Assembly: GCA_029265875.1 (NCBI GenBank)
Contig: JAJUGS010000010.1
Coordinates: forward strand, 1-32,328
Length of the DNA stretch: 32,328 nt
Source: Prolixibacteraceae bacterium
GTDB taxonomy: Bacteria > Bacteroidota > Bacteroidia > Bacteroidales > Prolixibacteraceae
Direction: 5' to 3'
The notes under the pieces are model-generated. The model was not told the origin of the DNA, did not search any database, and saw only the letters and a program-made list of their open reading frames with translations. Positions 23,716 to 32,328 of the stretch are shown here, one piece after another. Both the position numbers and the translations under genes were made by a program. How positions within the stretch are numbered: the first letter of the stretch is position 1; every line of letters starts with the position of its first letter.

Positions 23716-24129
23716 TTACAACGACGCCCAGATTCTTGCCAGCGAATACCCCGGAGCTTTTATTTCGAGGTCGAGAAAATAGCCAAAGGGAGTTTGTGCA
23801 GTGGTGTAACCTGCATTCTGTAAACGTTTTTCGGCCAGGTTAAAAATTTCGCGGGTAAACTCAACCGAAGCTTTTGATTCGGAAAGATGGGCAAACGAAT
23901 GAAGAATGAGGCTGTTGCAGTTATTTTTCCGGGCGGTCCATTTCAGGTGGTTGACCAGTTTTTTTTCGCGGCTGGCAACGTCGAACTGTTCGTCGGCCTC
24001 TTCAACCTGGATAAATGCAAGAATGCTGTTGGCGAAAGTTTTTCCTTCGGTAATTTCTTCGGCTGAATCAAGGTTTCGGGTATTTGGGCGGTAACTGAAT
24101 TCATCAACAAACATCACCAATACTTTCAT
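23716..24129 (-). CDS. Free-standing threonyl-tRNA synthetase editing domain protein
   Basis: This 137-residue protein matches the archaeal threonyl-tRNA synthetase editing domain (tRNA-Thr_ED, with a D-aminoacyl-tRNA deacylase fold) over its whole length. In archaea that domain removes serine wrongly attached to tRNA-Thr. Shared landmarks are the N-terminal strand MKVLVMFVDEFSY, AFIQVEEAD (38-46), LHSFAHLSES with H81 at the position of the active-site histidine, and TPFGYF (113-118) followed by APGYSLAR. The lysine that follows the PFGYY motif in Pyrococcus seems to be Leu119 here, so activity is uncertain. Its ATG overlaps the stop codon of the haem-binding gene upstream (24126-24129). No synthetase is attached or adjacent. 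Confidence 0.82.
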   Translation of the reverse strand: MKVLVMFVDEFSYRPNTRNLDSAEEITEGKTFANSILAFIQVEEADEQFDVASREKKLVNHLKWTARKNNCNSLILHSFAHLSESKASVEFTREIFNLAEKRLQNAGYTTAQTPFGYFLDLEIKAPGYSLARIWASL

Positions 24130-24596
24130 TCTTCCGGCTGGTTCATCAGTTCATCACTTTTTTTATCGATCCACTCAATTATTGCTTTTTGGGTTTCTTT
24201 GTCCAGTTTTGCTTCGCGATGCATCATTACATAAGGTTTCAAGGGCATGGTTCCGCGCTCAATTTCCTGTTTCATATCTTCCAGCGCTTTTATTTTATCG
24301 TAATCATCCAGCGTCTTCCATTCCGAAAGATTCAGTTCTTTTTTGCCATTGGTGATATGTTGGTTGATCATCCACGAAACCGGGGAAATTTTATGGTACC
24401 ACAGGTACTTTGTGTTGTTGGAATGACAATCGAGACAGGCATTTTGAAAAGCTTCCTTAACTTCAGATGGCATATTTTCGGAATTGATAACCAGGTTTTC
24501 CGTGCTTTCTGAAATATTTTTTTCAGGCTGAAAAAACTGGGTAACAACAAAAGCGACAAACAATGCTGCGGCGGAAATGATGATCAGCTTCTTCAT
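24126..24596 (-). CDS. Haem-binding domain protein (cytochrome c-like, periplasmic)
   Basis: This 156-residue protein has an N-terminal hydrophobic segment (5-20) that is a signal peptide or anchor. It is followed by a single haem c site in NACLDCHSNNTKYLWYHK, the signature of the Haem_bd family. The partner motif GTMPLKPYVMMH supplies a likely methionine axial ligand, and LDKETQKAIIEWID is the usual C-terminal helix. The family is small and its role is mostly unknown, probably electron transfer in the periplasm. It is followed with overlapping stop and start by the editing-domain gene. A strong hairpin separates it from the second haem protein upstream. Confidence 0.85.
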   Translation of the reverse strand: MKKLIIISAAALFVAFVVTQFFQPEKNISESTENLVINSENMPSEVKEAFQNACLDCHSNNTKYLWYHKISPVSWMINQHITNGKKELNLSEWKTLDDYDKIKALEDMKQEIERGTMPLKPYVMMHREAKLDKETQKAIIEWIDKKSDELMNQPEE

Positions 24597-24611
24597 AATC
24601 TTAATCGGTAA

Positions 24612-24657
24612 AAAATACCCGGAAAATCTGTCACGACAGCACTCTTCCGGGTATTTT
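24612..24657 (-). terminator. Hairpin terminator between the two haem-protein genes
   Basis: AAAATACCCGGAA and TTCCGGGTATTTT form a 13-bp stem enclosing a 20-base loop that itself can pair (CTGT-CACG-ACAG). On the minus strand the stem ends in a T-run. It would end, or thin out, transcription from the upstream haem gene. Confidence 0.8.
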
Positions 24658-24671
24658 GGTTAAAAATGCCA

Positions 24672-25061
24672 TTATTTTTTCATCAGGGCTTTGCCTTCAC
24701 TTTTTGCCCAGTCGATCAGGATTTTCTTTTCTGCATCCGTTAATTTTTTGTCGGGGAATTTTTCAAGGAATTTTGCCGGTGGCATTTCGTTTTCCTCAAC
24801 GGTTTCGGCAATTTCGCCCAACGCGTGGATCATCTCTTTTTTGCCCAGCGTATCAAATGTTTTCAGGTCGAGTTTTTCCTTGGCCTTGTCGTTCTTCGAG
24901 TCGGTGTTGTGGCAGCCAAAACATGATTTTTCAATCACCGCCTTAACATTGTCGGGCATCACAGGGGCTTTTGTTTCGGTAGGGTTAACCGACGCTTTCA
25001 GCCAACCTGCCGAAACAAATAATGCAAACAGTGTGATAACAAAGTGTTTTTTTCTGATCAT
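24672..25061 (-). CDS. Small haem-binding domain protein (cytochrome c-like, secreted)
   Basis: The 129-residue protein has a clear signal peptide (MIRKKHFVITLFALFVSAG, cut near residue 24) and one haem c site in SCFGCHNTDS. ENEMPPAKFLEKFPDKKLTDAEKKILIDW follows, with a probable methionine ligand in EMPP and the C-terminal helix of the Haem_bd family. It appears related to the next gene downstream (24126-24596), the pair probably coming from an old duplication. A periplasmic electron carrier role is likely but unproven. The DsbD-type protein at 10708 could supply the reductant needed to attach haem. Confidence 0.82.
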   Translation of the reverse strand: MIRKKHFVITLFALFVSAGWLKASVNPTETKAPVMPDNVKAVIEKSCFGCHNTDSKNDKAKEKLDLKTFDTLGKKEMIHALGEIAETVEENEMPPAKFLEKFPDKKLTDAEKKILIDWAKSEGKALMKK

Positions 25062-25211: not shown

Positions 25212-27407
25212 ATGAACCGATTATATTCAGGGATTTTGATATTGATACTCATTTTGGCAACAGGGCAAATTAGTGCCCAGTTATCAAAAATGGGGGTTCC
25301 GTTGAAAATAAAACAGTTAAAAAGTTCACGTGGCGGGAAAGTCGAAATGCCCTCATTTCTTTCGTATTTCAGCAGCGAAGTGCAAACCGTGCAGGATGAA
25401 AAGCAACTGAAACCATTCAAATTTGCTCATGGTTACCCGGTGAACCTGACAACCGGGAATTCTGGAGAATGGTTTTCTGCAGCCGATTCAGAAGATATGG
25501 CTGTGTGGCGGTTAACCATAAAATCGGCGGGTGCCTATTCGCTCAATCTTGTTTTTGATGATTTTGAGATACCAGAAAACGCCCGCTTATTTGTTTACAG
25601 CGAAACAGAAGAATATCTTTTAGGTGCTTTTACACAAGATAACAATTCAGCATCACGAAAATTTGCCATTTCCCCGGTTGCGGGCGATGAGATTACCGTA
25701 CAATACGAAGTACCGGAAAAACTCAGTCATGTCGATCCTTTCAGGATTATACAGGTGAATCACGATTATGTGGGAATTTTAAAGTCGGGCACTCGCCGGC
25801 CAATGGGCAAAACAGCAGGCTCGTGCAATATTGATATTAATTGTGATGCCTGGGGCAGTTGGGAAGAACCTAAAAATTCAGTGGTGCGCATCATTATTAA
25901 TAAACCGGGAGGATCGGAAATCTGCACTGGTGTGCTTGTAAATAACACAGCCGAAAATCAAAAGCCGTATGTTTTATCGGCGGCACACTGTTTCGACAAG
26001 TGGAGCTATGCTGAAACCTCTGTTTTTACATTTAATTACGAAAGTCCGTTTTGTAAACCTTTAGATGGCGATCCATCCAATTCAATTTCAGGTGCTGCCA
26101 TGAAAGCTCAGTTCGACAGTCTTGATTTTGCCCTGGTGCTGCTGAATACGGTTCCGCCTCCTGAGTACCGTCCGTATTATGCAGGTTGGAACAGAATCTC
26201 TGAAGTTTCCGAATCATCTGTTAGCATTCATCATCCACAGGGCGATATTAAAAAGCTGGCCAACGACAATGATGCTTCGGTAATTGCCACATTCGACTCG
26301 CCATACGTAAAAAACGGGCATCTCAGGATCTTAAAATGGGAAGGCGGTACTACCGAACAGGGTTCTTCAGGAGGCCCGTTGTTCGATCAGAATAAACTGT
26401 TAAAGGGAACTTTAACCGGCGGTTCGGCGGTTTGTGGAAAATCGGTGGATGATTATTTTGCCAGGCTGGCACTTGCCTGGGATTACAAAAACGATTCAAC
26501 GAAACAGTTAAAATACTGGCTCGACCCTTTAAAAACAAACCCCGCGACCCTGCAGGGAAAACAGTTTTATACGGAAGCAGATTTATGCGGGGCGTTTACC
26601 AATCTGACAGATATTGACTCTTATGCACTTGTTCCAATAAAAAACGGGACCGAATTTGCCGGTTATTGGGGTGGTTCAAACAGCGTTGGGATTACTGAAA
26701 TAACTGAAAAATTCAAGACCGAGGCAAATCTGCATTTAAAAGGAATATCGCTTGGAGTGGGCCGTATTAAAAACGCTATAAAAAGCCAGAACAGCGAGAT
26801 TACCATCAAAATTTATAATGGCACTTCGGTACCCGGGCAACCCATTTATTCGCAAAGCGTGAAAACTTCGGAATTGGCTCCTGATGCCATGAATTATATC
26901 CCGTTTACAAAAGTTGTAAAACCCGGAACCGAGTTTTTTGCCGGTTTCGAGATTTCAAATGTTGCTGCACCCGATTCTTTTGCCATTTACCAGTCATTAA
27001 AAGCATCCACCCAAACTAACAGCTGTTTTATCAGGAAGAATAATCAATGGAATGCTTTTTCCAGCCTGAACGCCGAAAAAAAAACCATGTCGAACATTAT
27101 CGAACTGGTTGCCTGCAATATCAACAATTTCAATACCGATACACCCAGGGTTGAAAATCCGTTAGATATTGTGGTGTTCCCGAATCCTGTCACTTCAACA
27201 TTCACGGTTGAAGCTGGTAAAGAAATTACTGCACAGCAAATAAAAGTATATAATGTCGCAGGACAATTGTGCACCTGCAAAATCACCCCAATCGGCGACA
27301 GAAAATTAAATGTGGATATGAGAGGCAATGTTTCGGGGATCTATTTTGTACATTATAACAACGGCAACAGTTTCATTACCAAAAAGATTTCATTTGTTCA
27401 GTGGTGA
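25212..27407 (+). CDS. Secreted lysyl-endopeptidase-like serine protease with T9SS type A sorting domain
   Basis: This is a 731-residue exported protease. A signal peptide (1-22, ending in SAQ) is followed by an N-terminal propeptide-like region to about 200. The trypsin-fold domain runs from about 204 to 440. Catalytic residues are H259 (LSAAHC), D305 (SLDFALVLLN) and S386 (EQGSSGGPL). CNIDINC, LVNNTAENQ, AGWNR and the IHHPQGD loop resemble Achromobacter lysyl endopeptidase (Lys-C), though lysine preference is not proven here. A beta-rich module (about 450-640) comes next. The end is a T9SS sorting domain with FPNPVTSTFTV and SGIYFVHYNNG, which sends the protein through the outer membrane. 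Mature activity probably needs removal of the N-terminal part. Confidence 0.9.
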   Translation: MNRLYSGILILILILATGQISAQLSKMGVPLKIKQLKSSRGGKVEMPSFLSYFSSEVQTVQDEKQLKPFKFAHGYPVNLTTGNSGEWFSAADSEDMAVWRLTIKSAGAYSLNLVFDDFEIPENARLFVYSETEEYLLGAFTQDNNSASRKFAISPVAGDEITVQYEVPEKLSHVDPFRIIQVNHDYVGILKSGTRRPMGKTAGSCNIDINCDAWGSWEEPKNSVVRIIINKPGGSEICTGVLVNNTAENQKPYVLSAAHCFDKWSYAETSVFTFNYESPFCKPLDGDPSNSISGAAMKAQFDSLDFALVLLNTVPPPEYRPYYAGWNRISEVSESSVSIHHPQGDIKKLANDNDASVIATFDSPYVKNGHLRILKWEGGTTEQGSSGGPLFDQNKLLKGTLTGGSAVCGKSVDDYFARLALAWDYKNDSTKQLKYWLDPLKTNPATLQGKQFYTEADLCGAFTNLTDIDSYALVPIKNGTEFAGYWGGSNSVGITEITEKFKTEANLHLKGISLGVGRIKNAIKSQNSEITIKIYNGTSVPGQPIYSQSVKTSELAPDAMNYIPFTKVVKPGTEFFAGFEISNVAAPDSFAIYQSLKASTQTNSCFIRKNNQWNAFSSLNAEKKTMSNIIELVACNINNFNTDTPRVENPLDIVVFPNPVTSTFTVEAGKEITAQQIKVYNVAGQLCTCKITPIGDRKLNVDMRGNVSGIYFVHYNNGNSFITKKISFVQW

Positions 27408-27417
27408 TCAGCATTGC

Positions 27418-28161
27418 TTATCTCGTTAATTTAAGCAACCCATTGATGATCGTTAACGGGTGAGGCGGATTGCCTGGGATGTACAGATCGATTTTTACAT
27501 CTTTCAGAATACTGCGTTCGAGTGCTGCGCTGTCGGCAAAAATGCCACCGCTGATTGCATCGACTCCGCACAAGATAAAGAGTTTGGGTGATGGAATGGC
27601 TTCCCAGGTAGTTTTCAGTGCTTCGGCCATGTTTTCCGAAATGGGGCCGGTAACCACCACGCCATCAGCATATCGCGGTGAAGCCACAAATTCAATTCCA
27701 TACCTGCCCATATCAAAATTGGCATTTCCACAGGCGTTCAGTTCAAACTCACACGAATTGTCGCCACCTGCCGAAACCTGCCTTAATTTCAGTGATTTGC
27801 CAAAAACTGTTTTAATTTTTGGGTCGATCAAAGTCTGGTCCAGCTCAATATTTTTTTTCTCACCCTCAGAAATAATAAGGTTTTCGAGCTTGTTTGTACT
27901 GATTTTATGGTCGTTTGTGAAAGTGATTTTTTCAGGAAAACGAAAAGCACATTCGCCGCAGAAGTTGCATTTTGCAAGGTTAATTCTGACAGGATTTGCC
28001 GAAATGGCATTTAACGGGCAGCAACTCACCAGTGCATTTTCATCCACTTTTAGGGAACTGATTTCCGTCCGTCCGCGAAAAGGTGCCGGAACTTCGGCTT
28101 TTGTGGGATCAGTGATAAATTGTTTGCCGTTGTGTTTTATGATTTTAATTTCCTGTAACAT
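27418..28161 (-). CDS. HyfI/NuoB-like small subunit fused to a one-cluster ferredoxin domain (Ehr-type complex)
   Basis: This 247-residue protein joins a ferredoxin-like part (about 40-80) to a domain related to group 4 hydrogenase small subunits and NuoB (about 120-247). The ferredoxin part has C48 (CCPLNAI) and C65, C68, C71 (CNFCGEC), which is one cluster's worth of ligands. The position of the next CP cysteine is F75. In the NuoB-like domain the proximal-cluster cysteines, by comparison with HycG, read D134, C137, D201 and N231 (PGNPP instead of PGCPP). That cluster is therefore probably absent. The rest of the fold is kept (SPRYADGVVVTGPIS, SGGIF). It is the last gene of the minus-strand operon, 10 bases after the large subunit. 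It probably accepts or passes electrons through its single ferredoxin cluster. Confidence 0.82.
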   Translation of the reverse strand: MLQEIKIIKHNGKQFITDPTKAEVPAPFRGRTEISSLKVDENALVSCCPLNAISANPVRINLAKCNFCGECAFRFPEKITFTNDHKISTNKLENLIISEGEKKNIELDQTLIDPKIKTVFGKSLKLRQVSAGGDNSCEFELNACGNANFDMGRYGIEFVASPRYADGVVVTGPISENMAEALKTTWEAIPSPKLFILCGVDAISGGIFADSAALERSILKDVKIDLYIPGNPPHPLTIINGLLKLTR

Positions 28162-28171
28162 CTTCAGTTTT

Positions 28172-29695
28172 TTAAAGGTCGAATCCGCAGTAACTTAAAT
28201 TGTAACTCTTATTGTTGATCGGAAAGTCGGAAATTTCAAGGTTTCGCAACGAAAGTTCCAGTGCTTTCCAGTTGTGAAACGATGGGTCCTTTATTTTGTA
28301 ATAAACCAGTTCCCCGTTTTTGCCCGTCACAGCGGTGTGGCAAATCTCACCGCGCCAGCCTTCCACCAGCGAAACGGCCAGTCTTCCGGGTTTCAGCGCA
28401 ATATCACTGACTGGTTTTGGAGAAGGATGGACAAATTCTTCGTTTTTTAATACTTCCCTGATCCAGAAAATGGATTGTTTTATCTCTTTCCGGCGCAGCA
28501 AAAAACGGGAGAAAACGTCACCTTTTGGCAAAACTATTGGGGTGTATGGATGTTTTACAAATGCTTTGGAAGGGTGGCTTTTCCGAACATCGCGCGGAAT
28601 ATTTGCCATTCGTGCAACCATCCCGACTGCCCCGATTTTCCGCATTTGTTGCTCGGTAACAGTTCCGATATCATCAAAACGGTTTTCAACACTGGGCAAA
28701 CGGTAAGTGAGGTGGGCCAGTTCAACAAATTGTTTTTCGTATTTATCGAGAGTTTGCAGAATCTGACTTTTGAGCTGATTTGTCAAAGGGTAGTGCGTTC
28801 CTCCTGTTCTGATCATTCCTTTTCCAAGCCGGTTTCCGCACCACGCCTGGGTTTGGTTGATGATTGCCGTGCGGAGAATTCCAAAAATACTGGCTCCGAG
28901 GTTGTAAGCCACGTCTGTGCAAAGTGCAGAAATATCGGCAGTGTGCACGGCAATGCGCTCCAGTTCCAGTGCGATTGAGCGTTCAATATCAAGCTGAGTG
29001 GCTGTTTCAATTCCGGCAAGCGATTCCATTATACCGGCAAAGGCCAGGCTGTGACCAACTGTCGTATCTCCCGCAACCGATTCGGCCACAATATTACGTT
29101 GCAGCAAAGTTTGTTTATCCAATAAAGTCTGTTCAACTCCGCGGTGTTGCCAGCCCAACTGTATTTCGAGGTGCAACACATTTTCGCCATTACAGATAAA
29201 CCTGAAATGCCCCGGTTCGATAATTCCGGCATGAACGGGACCAACGCCAACTTCGTGCAGTTCATTACTTTCGATGGAATAAAACGGATAATCGTTAATT
29301 TTTAGGTTCGTATCAGCGCGGTTATGCGCAAATCTGACCGGTTTCAGCCACGGATGCCCCGGAAAACCAACACCAAAGTTCTCGTGAATTTCGCGCTCGA
29401 AAATATGAAGTGCGTTGATTTGTGGTGTCAGCGATGCGAGTTCCTGTTCGACATTTTTCGGTAAAAAATGGGAGAGAATAAAAATATTTTGGGTGGAGTC
29501 GTTTGCAATGGCAGCTATAAATTTAAGTCCATCATCCTGGGGAAAAGCAAAATAGGTGACACAGTGATTTTCGTTAAGCGTCAGCAATTCAATTATTTCT
29601 TTGCTGAAATCCGCGTAATTTAAAACCGGGATCAAATCGGTTTCAATGGATTTGCAATTTTGAATTATACAATATTTTTTGTTTTCAGAAACCAT
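28172..29695 (-). CDS. HyfG/HycE-like large subunit without NiFe ligands (Ehr-type complex)
   Basis: This 507-residue protein fuses a NuoC-like part (about 1-115; HIFEREIHENFGVGFPGHPW is typical) with a NuoD/hydrogenase large-subunit part. Family landmarks are VGPVHAGIIEPGHFRF, LGWQHRGVEQTLL and ELERIAVHTADI. The first metal motif, ERVCGICGFAHS in E. coli HycE, reads ESVAGDTTVGHS here, so both cysteines become A208 and T211. The second, DPCxxC, reads DPSFHN, giving S472 and N475. No NiFe centre can be held in the usual way, so it is not a working hydrogenase. It could bind a quinone or another substrate in the vacated cavity, as NuoD does. It lies six bases after the antiporter-like subunit. 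Confidence 0.88.
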   Translation of the reverse strand: MVSENKKYCIIQNCKSIETDLIPVLNYADFSKEIIELLTLNENHCVTYFAFPQDDGLKFIAAIANDSTQNIFILSHFLPKNVEQELASLTPQINALHIFEREIHENFGVGFPGHPWLKPVRFAHNRADTNLKINDYPFYSIESNELHEVGVGPVHAGIIEPGHFRFICNGENVLHLEIQLGWQHRGVEQTLLDKQTLLQRNIVAESVAGDTTVGHSLAFAGIMESLAGIETATQLDIERSIALELERIAVHTADISALCTDVAYNLGASIFGILRTAIINQTQAWCGNRLGKGMIRTGGTHYPLTNQLKSQILQTLDKYEKQFVELAHLTYRLPSVENRFDDIGTVTEQQMRKIGAVGMVARMANIPRDVRKSHPSKAFVKHPYTPIVLPKGDVFSRFLLRRKEIKQSIFWIREVLKNEEFVHPSPKPVSDIALKPGRLAVSLVEGWRGEICHTAVTGKNGELVYYKIKDPSFHNWKALELSLRNLEISDFPINNKSYNLSYCGFDL

Positions 29696-29701
29696 GTGGC
29701 G

Positions 29702-31126
29702 TCAGTTTAAAAGTTGAATGGTCTGTTTGATCAGATCGGTTAAAATTGCTGGAGGATTGAATCCCATGTAAATTACCGCGAAAAACAGCACAAACTGCGA
29801 AACCGGTTCAAGGCGGTTGGCGAAAACGGCATCAGGTTTAAAATTCTCGGGGAGATCAGCAAAAAGCAGGTGCATGGTTTTTGAAATTATAAAATACATA
29901 ATAATAGTCATCATGATCAGAACCGCAACGGCAGTAACAATGAATCCCTCTGAAAAAAGCGCTTTGAAAATCATGAACTCGGTAATAAACAAACCCGATG
30001 GCGGAATGGCAGTTACAGAGATAATTCCCAATAAAAAGGCGAGCGCCCCGGTCGGATTCAACTTAAAGTAGGAACCGGTGTCTTTGATCCATCCGCTGTG
30101 AAAGAATGCCCGCACCTGTCCGAACTGAAAAAATAATCCGCCTTTTATAAACGAGTGAAAAACAAGGTGCAGCAATGCCGCGTAATACCCTGCTTTCCCT
30201 GCAGAAATGGTAATTAAAATAAGTGCAACATGTTCCATGCTGGAAAAGGCAAACATCCTTTTGTATCGTTTAATTCTGAATAACTGAATGGTTGCCAGCG
30301 AAATGCTGATTAACCCGGTAACCAGTAAAACGTTTTGTGCCCACGAATTCAGCGGGGTTTGATTGATAACTGTGTACACCCTGAAAATGGCTATGAAACC
30401 CGCATTGATCATGGCAGTTGAAAAAATGGCATTCACCGGCGACGGCGCAACTGTTTTGGCATCAATGGTTCCGGCGTAAAACGGGAAAACATTCAGCTTG
30501 GCGCTGTAACCGGTAAGTATCAGAACGAAAGCGGTTTTCAGAAAAAACGGGTCCATTTTCTGTGCGACCGATGCAAGATACGACACCGAAAGATTGGCGC
30601 CTTCGGGCGAAGTAGCCTGGGTTGCCAAAATCAGAATACCCAAAAATGCGATGGCAATTCCCACTGACGAAAGAAAAAGATATTTCCAGGCAGCTTCGAG
30701 CGGTGTTTCATACCGGTTGTGAAAAATCAGGAAGGTCATGCAGAGTGTGGTCGCTTCAATGCTGACCCACATCAACACAATATTTTCGGCAAAATAAACT
30801 GACGAAAGTGCCGTGGCCAGAATAATCATAATTGCAGCAAAACGGGTTTCGCTTTTTACGTCTTTTACATGCCTTTTGAAATAGAGATTGGAATGAAACA
30901 GCGTCGGGACCAGCAGGATGCTTAAAAGTGCATTCATCAGCACCGACAAGCTGTCGAACTGATAATAGACCGTATCGAAAGAATCCAGATTTTTGTAGGA
31001 ATAAACGGTTAACAGACAATGAAGGGCTACAAACAGTGTGCTTCCGACTGCCATGATGATTCTGTTAGCAAACAGAAAAATCAGCAGGCTCAAAACAAAC
31101 GCTATCCCGAAAAAAAGTAAAATCAT
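29702..31126 (-). CDS. HyfF/NuoN-like proton- or ion-translocating membrane subunit (Ehr-type complex)
   Basis: This 474-residue protein is almost entirely membrane helices (about 13-14) and belongs to the NuoL/M/N and Mrp antiporter family, closest to hydrogenase-4 subunit F. The key charged residues of the family are visible: Glu in WVSIEATTL, Lys in GYSAKLNVFPFY, and Lys in KRYKRMFAFSSMEHVALI. The conserved APSPVNAIFST segment is also present. It lacks the usual HxWLPDA stretch (FYAGTIDAKTVAPSP instead). It would form the ion channel arm of the complex. The leader upstream contains the palindromic element at 31153-31250, which separates it from the HyfE-like gene. Confidence 0.88.
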   Translation of the reverse strand: MILLFFGIAFVLSLLIFLFANRIIMAVGSTLFVALHCLLTVYSYKNLDSFDTVYYQFDSLSVLMNALLSILLVPTLFHSNLYFKRHVKDVKSETRFAAIMIILATALSSVYFAENIVLMWVSIEATTLCMTFLIFHNRYETPLEAAWKYLFLSSVGIAIAFLGILILATQATSPEGANLSVSYLASVAQKMDPFFLKTAFVLILTGYSAKLNVFPFYAGTIDAKTVAPSPVNAIFSTAMINAGFIAIFRVYTVINQTPLNSWAQNVLLVTGLISISLATIQLFRIKRYKRMFAFSSMEHVALILITISAGKAGYYAALLHLVFHSFIKGGLFFQFGQVRAFFHSGWIKDTGSYFKLNPTGALAFLLGIISVTAIPPSGLFITEFMIFKALFSEGFIVTAVAVLIMMTIIMYFIISKTMHLLFADLPENFKPDAVFANRLEPVSQFVLFFAVIYMGFNPPAILTDLIKQTIQLLN

Positions 31127-31284: not shown

Positions 31285-31914
31285 TTAATCTTTTAACTGG
31301 CTCAGTTTACTGGCCGAAATTGTATCAAAAGTATCCTTCACCTTGTTCATAAAAACACCGATTACCAACACTGCAATCAACACGTCTAACAAAACCGCCA
31401 GGCTCACAAGAAATGGCATTTCGCCACCAACCGCAAGCGACAGCAAAAAAGCGCCGTTTTCAATAATGAGAAAACCAACGAGGTGACTGAAAATATTTTT
31501 ATGGATGATGATGAAATACATTCCTCCTATCACGGTTGCCAGCGCCACGGTAAAAAATCGTAACTGAATCACTTCGTTGTTGATGGTGTAGCTCATCAGA
31601 AAACATCCGATCAGAACCGCTGAAATAATGATTAATGAATAAAAAACGGGCACTTTGCTTTCGTGGACCCTTTTTAACTGGTTTTGATGACGCAGCCGGT
31701 TCAGAAACCAGGGAATTATAATTGCCTTGACAATCAAAGTTTCAAGCAGAATTACAATCAGTCCGAGGAGTTGAATATGAATGAGGTTGTTAAAGGCAAT
31801 TCCAAAAAGTAAAGTTCCCTGAATGGCAAGCAACCAGATAAAATTCGATACTCTTTCGGAAAGGAAAAAGTACACGAGGGTTGCGGCGAACAAAACAATC
31901 AGAACAATAACCAT
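31285..31914 (-). CDS. HyfE-like membrane subunit (hydrogenase-4 component E / NuoK-MrpC type)
   Basis: This 209-residue protein has about six membrane helices and resembles hydrogenase-4 component E, whose C-terminal half is related to NuoK and MrpC. The family pattern includes LIVILLETLIVKAIIIPWFL, the conserved glutamate in GFLIIENGAFLLSL, and VLLDVLIAVLVIGVFMNK near the end. It would join the channel arm of the complex. It starts two bases after the HyfC-like stop codon (TGA-T-ATG), so the two are translated from one message. A gap of 158 bases with a palindromic element follows before the HyfF-like gene. Confidence 0.87.
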   Translation of the reverse strand: MVIVLIVLFAATLVYFFLSERVSNFIWLLAIQGTLLFGIAFNNLIHIQLLGLIVILLETLIVKAIIIPWFLNRLRHQNQLKRVHESKVPVFYSLIIISAVLIGCFLMSYTINNEVIQLRFFTVALATVIGGMYFIIIHKNIFSHLVGFLIIENGAFLLSLAVGGEMPFLVSLAVLLDVLIAVLVIGVFMNKVKDTFDTISASKLSQLKD

Positions 31915-31915
31915 A

Positions 31916-32328
31916 TCAATTCATTAAAATTATTTTTCCGGTAATAATCAGTACCGACAGAAATCCAAGTATGGCTAACGCTGTCAGTGAAATGATCCAC
32001 TGCGCATTTTTGGCCATTTTGTTTCTTGCCCTGAACGACTCAAAAACACCAACCGAAATGGCAAAAAGAAATTCAACAACAAGAAAAATAACCAGTTGAG
32101 CAGCAAAATAATCTTGCATCGGCAGTACAAAATTAAAAATGAGTGCGCCATAAACCGCAAACTTAAATCCGTTGGCAAACTGAATCAAAGCAAGATCGAA
32201 CCCACTGTAATCGAGCTACATCTCTTCGTGTAACATGGTTAGTTCGAGATGTGTTTTTGGGTCGTCAACCGGCAGGCGTCTGTTTTCGACCATGGCAATC
32301 AACAAAAAGATGTAAACTGCAAGCAGTG
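31916..32328 (-). pseudogene. HyfC/NuoH-like membrane subunit, C-terminal part, broken by an in-frame TAG (5' end beyond window)
   Basis: Reading the minus strand from the window edge gives VENRRLPVDDPKTHLELTML, the NuoH/HyfC-type loop that contacts the soluble arm and quinone site. It continues HEEM, then TAG at 32218-32216, then LDYSGFDLALIQFANG and three membrane helices to the stop at 31916. Both sides are in the same frame and both match the family, so this is one gene with a nonsense codon rather than two genes. The track's 90-residue ORF starts at a TTG after the TAG and is just the tail. A sequencing error, a real mutation, or readthrough are the options. The 5' part of the operon, including any HyfB-like gene, lies outside the window. 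Confidence 0.8.
32216..32218 (-). other. In-frame amber codon inside the HyfC/NuoH-like gene
   Basis: The codon order is GAA GAG ATG TAG CTC GAT TAC. One base change from GAG, CAG, AAG or TGG would explain it. It falls just before the conserved LDYSGxDLA motif. Confidence 0.85.

What the first reader, a model, noticed from the sequence alone, without database searches (positions are those of the whole stretch)
27418..28161. Small subunit has lost three of four proximal-cluster ligands but kept the fold
Compared with HycG (CxxC, C, PGCPP), the positions read D134, C137, D201 and N231. If right, the electron route that ends near the active site in all known relatives is missing its last cluster. 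Loss in both subunits at once suggests a common change of mechanism.
Basis: partly seen in the sequence, partly recalled or inferred. Interest (0 to 1): 0.7.

Follow-up and report, generated by a model that had tools for sequence, protein, structure and literature searches.

The report
Hydrogenase-like pump without last iron-sulfur cluster
In a widespread group of Bacteroidales, a relative of hydrogenase and respiratory complex I has swapped the cysteines that hold its last iron-sulfur cluster for a conserved acidic set, so the usual electron wire is cut while the membrane ion-pump parts look intact.

Summary
The small subunit (27418-28161, minus strand) keeps the NuoB/HycG fold, but its proximal [4Fe-4S] ligand positions read D134, C137, D201, N231.

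It is not a one-off. Aligned relatives show only two states: CCCC (32) or acidic-x-D-N/D (71 with the window; 63 distinct full-length). Position 134 is always D/E, 201 always D, 231 N (one D). Position 137 is free (C/A/S/N/T/G/V), and three members have no cysteine in this domain, so no cluster can form there. The type is one clade (support 97/92, one origin) under purifying selection. The ferredoxin domain keeps exactly one [4Fe-4S] ligand set.

'Loss in both subunits at once' is wrong: sister complexes that keep all four proximal cysteines already lack the NiFe cysteines, so the losses were sequential.

The complex is a six-gene Ehr (energy-converting hydrogenase-related) operon without recurrent partners; its membrane subunits keep their conserved charged residues.

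Best explanation: a complex-I-family ion translocator whose electron route is cut, with the cluster replaced by a carboxylate/amide (proton or hard-cation) site. Ligand loss is shown; mechanism is inferred. No prior report was found in the papers searched, but the founding Ehr paper was not available.

The parts
27418..28161 (-). small subunit: N-terminal single-cluster ferredoxin-like domain fused to a NuoB/HycG domain without proximal-cluster ligands
27760..27762 (-). codon of D134 (first Cys of CxxC in hydrogenases); D or E in every member of the type
27751..27753 (-). codon of C137 (second Cys of CxxC); free to vary (C/A/S/N/T/G/V) in the type
27559..27561 (-). codon of D201 (third cluster Cys in relatives); always D in the type
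27469..27471 (-). codon of N231 (PGCPP Cys in relatives); N, once D, in the type
27949..28020 (-). ferredoxin-like cluster ligands C48, C65, C68, C71 (one complete [4Fe-4S] set, invariant in both types)
28172..29695 (-). large subunit (NuoC-like + NuoD/HycE-like, 507 aa), NiFe Cys motifs replaced by ESVAGDT and NLSYCGFDL
29702..31126 (-). HyfF/NuoN-type antiporter-like subunit; conserved Glu/Lys residues kept
31285..31914 (-). HyfE/NuoK-type membrane subunit
31916..32328 (-). HyfC/NuoH-type subunit, cut by the end of the contig (a HyfB-type gene is expected further upstream, as in L033)
   Evidence: position and order by comparison with L033

Best explanation
This is the hydrophilic small subunit of a six-subunit Ehr complex (complex I / group 4 hydrogenase superfamily), in a Bacteroidales-centred clade where the proximal [4Fe-4S] ligands were replaced once by an acidic-x-D-N set. 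SHOWN: the ligand loss, its conservation and single origin; prior loss of the NiFe ligands; one intact ferredoxin-type cluster ligand set; conserved charged residues in the membrane subunits; no recurrent partner gene. INFERRED: with the proximal relay gone, electrons arriving at the ferredoxin cluster cannot reach the former active-site chamber at useful rates. The complex therefore does no redox chemistry there. It works as an H+/cation translocator or antiporter in which D134-D201-N231 bind a proton or hard cation (Na+, Mg2+, Ca2+). Two carboxylates would mimic the negative charge of the lost cluster and gate the coupling between chamber and membrane. The remaining ferredoxin cluster would be structural or a redox switch.
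For: Two discrete states at the four positions with no intermediates; 134 only D/E, 201 only D, 231 N/D, while 137 drifts. Of nine small-subunit positions diagnostic for the clade, four (134, 136, 201, 231) are at or beside the cluster site. Three members have no Cys at all in residues 100-247. One origin on a tree built without the trait columns, support 97/92, 98% of bootstrap trees. dN 0.08 against dS 1.3 to the nearest relative. Charged residues conserved in HyfB, HyfC, HyfE and HyfF. Six-gene operon without recurrent partners in 47 loci of 10 kb or more. Own genome has no HypD match. Fold kept.
Against: No measurement of ion transport, metal binding or redox activity exists. The strict conservation of the ferredoxin cluster ligands argues that electrons may still matter somewhere. 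Membrane residues are conserved equally in the four-Cys relatives, so they do not prove a redox-free function. The geometry of the triad was not measured.
Confidence: 0.45

Rival explanations
1. Redox enzyme with a re-routed electron path: the retained ferredoxin cluster exchanges electrons with an unlinked soluble partner, or another cofactor (flavin, or a mononuclear metal at the D-D-N site) takes the place of the proximal cluster.
For: C48/C65/C68/C71 are invariant in the members that cover them; two carboxylates and an amide could hold a metal; the conserved large-subunit chamber (D210, R448, E450, H453, D506) is unchanged from the four-Cys relatives.
Against: No partner gene recurs next to the operon; hard-oxygen ligands are unlikely for a low-potential relay (established coordination chemistry); no flavin or extra metal domain in the Pfam/NCBIfam scans.
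Confidence: 0.25
2. Non-redox chemistry in the chamber: the D-D-N site plus the vacated NiFe pocket is a new catalytic or substrate-binding site whose turnover is coupled to ion flow, in the way that DabA-DabB is thought to couple ion flow to CO2 hydration.
For: Strict conservation of both vacated sites; a SulP-like transporter gene lies beside the operon in the closest relative L033 (read by eye).
Against: No known catalytic motif recognised; the SulP-like neighbour does not recur widely; relation to DabA was not tested.
Confidence: 0.15
3. Regulatory or structural relic: the peripheral arm is only a cap or assembly scaffold for a membrane antiporter, and the triad is a hydrogen-bond staple filling the hole left by the cluster.
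For: Loss of both metal sites in sequence; fold kept.
Against: A simple staple would be expected to tolerate more variation than D/E-D-N across diverged members, and the large-subunit chamber residues are nearly invariant.
Confidence: 0.15

Closest known systems
[quoted passage not shown]
   Same: Group 4 hydrogenase/complex I architecture, NiFe Cys absent, antiporter-like membrane subunits, function unknown
   Different: The passages read mention loss of the NiFe ligands only; here the proximal [4Fe-4S] ligands are also gone and replaced by a conserved acidic set. The defining paper (Marreiros 2013) was not available to me.
MBS sulfane sulfur reductase of Pyrococcus (PMC7684303)
   Same: No NiFe site; altered ligation of the proximal cluster
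   Different: MBS keeps the cluster on three Cys and uses it for catalysis; here no Fe-S ligation is possible
HycG/HycE of E. coli formate hydrogenlyase and MbhJ/MbhL
   Same: Closest sequences among solved structures for both subunits, and closest folds for the small one
   Different: They carry the proximal [4Fe-4S] and the NiFe site
Respiratory complex I NuoB/NuoD (own genome has a separate NuoB, L001)
   Same: NuoB/NuoD homology, membrane antiporter-like chain
   Different: Complex I keeps N2 on four Cys and reduces quinone
Mrp cation/proton antiporters
   Same: Suggested mode of action: ion exchange by antiporter-like subunits
   Different: Mrp has no NuoB/NuoD arm

Membership tests
Ehr complexes | Homology of large/small subunits to group 4 hydrogenases and complex I | tested here: met
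Ehr complexes | NiFe-binding CxxC motifs absent from the large subunit | tested here: met
Ehr complexes | Antiporter-like membrane subunits in the same operon | tested here: met
Ehr complexes | Proximal [4Fe-4S] ligands in the small subunit (present in the sister complexes here; I do not know whether any author makes it defining) | tested here: not met
Group 4 [NiFe] hydrogenase | Four NiFe-ligating Cys | tested here: not met
   no HypD match in own genome
Group 4 [NiFe] hydrogenase | Proximal [4Fe-4S] with four Cys | tested here: not met
MBS-type sulfane reductase | Three-Cys proximal cluster | tested here: not met
   at most one of the four ligand positions is Cys
Complex I | N2 cluster on NuoB (four Cys, two in tandem) | tested here: not met
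Complex I | NADH module encoded with the complex | tested here: not met
   no such gene recurs beside the operon
Cation/proton antiporter (mode of action) | Measured Na+/H+ or other antiport | not testable with these tools
   only conservation of charged residues

The most novel reading that the evidence does not exclude
A complex I superfamily machine that no longer uses electrons at its coupling site: the terminal cluster has been exchanged for a protonatable or cation-binding carboxylate set whose charge mimics the cluster, so that ion or proton binding, not redox, drives or gates the same membrane pump.
Probability: 0.35. Interest if true: 0.85.

Novelty: new variant of a known kind. Interest (0 to 1): 0.62.

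Why it matters
How redox chemistry near N2 or the NiFe site is coupled to ion pumping tens of angstroms away is a long-standing question. A natural, common and conserved branch in which both metal sites are gone, while the chamber and membrane charges are kept, offers a way to separate the electron part from the ion part of the coupling mechanism. It also adds a further step to the stepwise loss of metal ligands in this superfamily, and gives a simple sequence signature (GGDNS / GxDA / PGNP against GCNGC / GACA / PGCP) for annotation.

Tried and rejected
Alternative cluster from C137, C144 or C198: rejected, none is conserved and three members have no Cys in the domain. Sequencing error or a decaying gene: rejected by many independent genomes and dN much lower than dS. 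Simultaneous loss in both subunits: rejected. Low pLDDT of the former CxxC segment as a sign of the loss: rejected, a four-Cys relative is equally low. Recurrent accessory gene giving the function: none found in 47 loci. Link to NiFe maturation: the own genome has no HypD match, and only 17 of about 64 order-level genomes with the protein (four known non-members left out; counted by eye over the two lists) are among the 101 of 295 with HypD. Literature: no report found of proximal-cluster loss; Marreiros 2013 is not held. MAG organism names (for example the SulCav bins named Melioribacter, Rikenella, Methylomirabilis) are too unreliable to claim transfer between phyla.

Full report
OBSERVATION. 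The 247-aa ORF at 27418-28161 (minus strand) is a NuoB/HycG-like small subunit (Pfam Oxidored_q6, 5e-20) with an N-terminal ferredoxin-like domain. An AlphaFold model (pLDDT 86, pTM 0.85) finds MbhJ and HycG as nearest solved structures (TM 0.75 on MbhJ length). The fold is kept.

CONSERVATION. A phylum-wide search and a scan of 85,000 species genomes gave relatives mostly of 43-87% identity; a search in the own order found a relative in 68 of 295 genomes, 54 of 183 genera. In the alignment of all of them only two states occur at the four ligand positions: CCCC (32 sequences) or acidic-x-D-N/D (71 including the window; a further fragment, L070, shows only the first half). Some genomes were fetched from two collections; after removal of duplicates and fragments there are 63 and 32. 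Within the second state, position 134 is D (E in two), 201 always D and 231 N except one D, while 137 varies freely (C, A, S, N, T, G, V). Three members have no cysteine at all in residues 100-247. So no Fe-S cluster can be held by this domain, in this or another place. Of 49 order-level loci inspected, 45 are of this type, three keep CCCC and one (L117, partial) is the DCDD outlier. About 20 further matches were not read.

HISTORY. A maximum-likelihood tree built without the trait columns makes the acidic type one clade with one change of state (SH-aLRT 92; bootstrap/SH-aLRT 97/92 and 98% of bootstrap trees). The nearest CCCC rows (L100, L101) have long branches, so their exact place is unsure. 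The gene is under purifying selection (dN 0.080, dS 1.30 against L033). Nine small-subunit positions separate the two types, and four of them are 134, 136, 201 and 231: the change is focused on the cluster site.

LARGE SUBUNIT. All four NiFe ligand positions are replaced (A208, T211, S501, G504, by the alignment) in this clade, and in almost the same way in the CCCC sister complexes; only the Gastranaerophilales sampled keep one Cys at 208. D210, R448, E450, H453 and D506 are conserved in both types. So the NiFe site was lost first, in the common stock, and the proximal cluster later. The own genome, 94% complete, has no HypD match.

ELECTRON WIRE. The ferredoxin domain keeps exactly one [4Fe-4S] ligand set (C48, C65, C68, C71), invariant in all aligned members that cover it. 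Several sister proteins have cysteines for a second cluster there, while L008, L010 and L016 have only one set, so the chain may have shortened step by step (three, two, one cluster; inference). With the proximal cluster absent, the gap from the ferredoxin cluster to the former active-site chamber should exceed the distance for fast electron tunnelling (about 14 A; established knowledge; the distance itself was not measured here).

OPERON AND MEMBRANE ARM. In 47 loci of at least 10 kb the only widely recurrent genes are the HyfB-, HyfC-, HyfE- and HyfF-like membrane subunits plus the large and the small subunit; no donor, acceptor or maturation gene recurs. The window is a whole contig and ends inside the HyfC gene. 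Charged residues in the membrane subunits (for example HyfF E124, K210, K289, K328, E383; HyfC E118, E125, E133, E184, E198, E204, D209) are conserved in both types, which suggests that ion translocation is still selected.

MECHANISM. Best-supported reading: an Ehr-type ion translocator without electron delivery to its chamber, in which two carboxylates and an amide occupy the site of the lost cluster. D/E, D and N/D are hard-oxygen ligands suited to a proton, Na+, Mg2+ or Ca2+, and two carboxylates match the net charge of an oxidised [4Fe-4S](Cys)4 cluster; both points are inference from established chemistry. The retained ferredoxin cluster could be a redox switch or a structural element. 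Rivals are a re-routed redox enzyme, non-redox chemistry in the chamber, and a structural relic.

KNOWN WORK. Ehr complexes are described as lacking the NiFe ligands and having unknown function (PMC6349859, PMC10284858, PMC7304191). MBS has a three-Cys catalytic proximal cluster (PMC7684303). Filing: a new variant of Ehr, neither a hydrogenase nor complex I.

Noticed in passing
L035:1-10747 (Delongbacteria MAG): Parts of two Ehr operons of the acidic type in tandem; the two small subunits differ (DCDN and DADN).
   Followed up: partly
L117 (genome G407, partial gene on a short contig): Divergent relative with D, C, D, D at the four positions; could be an early branch of the clade or an independent loss.
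   Followed up: no
L056-L068 (Gastranaerophilales) large subunits: These Ehr complexes keep one of the four NiFe Cys positions (ESICGDS) and all four proximal Cys, a possible intermediate stage.
   Followed up: partly
L101:8952-13526: In a CCCC relative of the same order the Ehr operon is followed by genes that look like a soluble NAD-reducing hydrogenase set (read by eye, not searched).
   Followed up: no
window 25212-27407, + strand: 731-aa secreted protein that by eye looks like a trypsin-like protease with a C-terminal sorting domain; the closest relative L033 has a similar gene directly beside the operon.
   Followed up: no
window 24126-25061, - strand: Two small exported proteins each with a CxxCH haem motif; a similar pair lies near the operon in L033.
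   Followed up: no
window 23716-24129, - strand: 137-aa protein that by eye resembles a stand-alone threonyl-tRNA editing domain; a similar one is present in L033.
   Followed up: no
L033:1473-3134: SulP-like transporter gene next to the Ehr operon in the nearest relative; it does not recur widely.
   Followed up: partly
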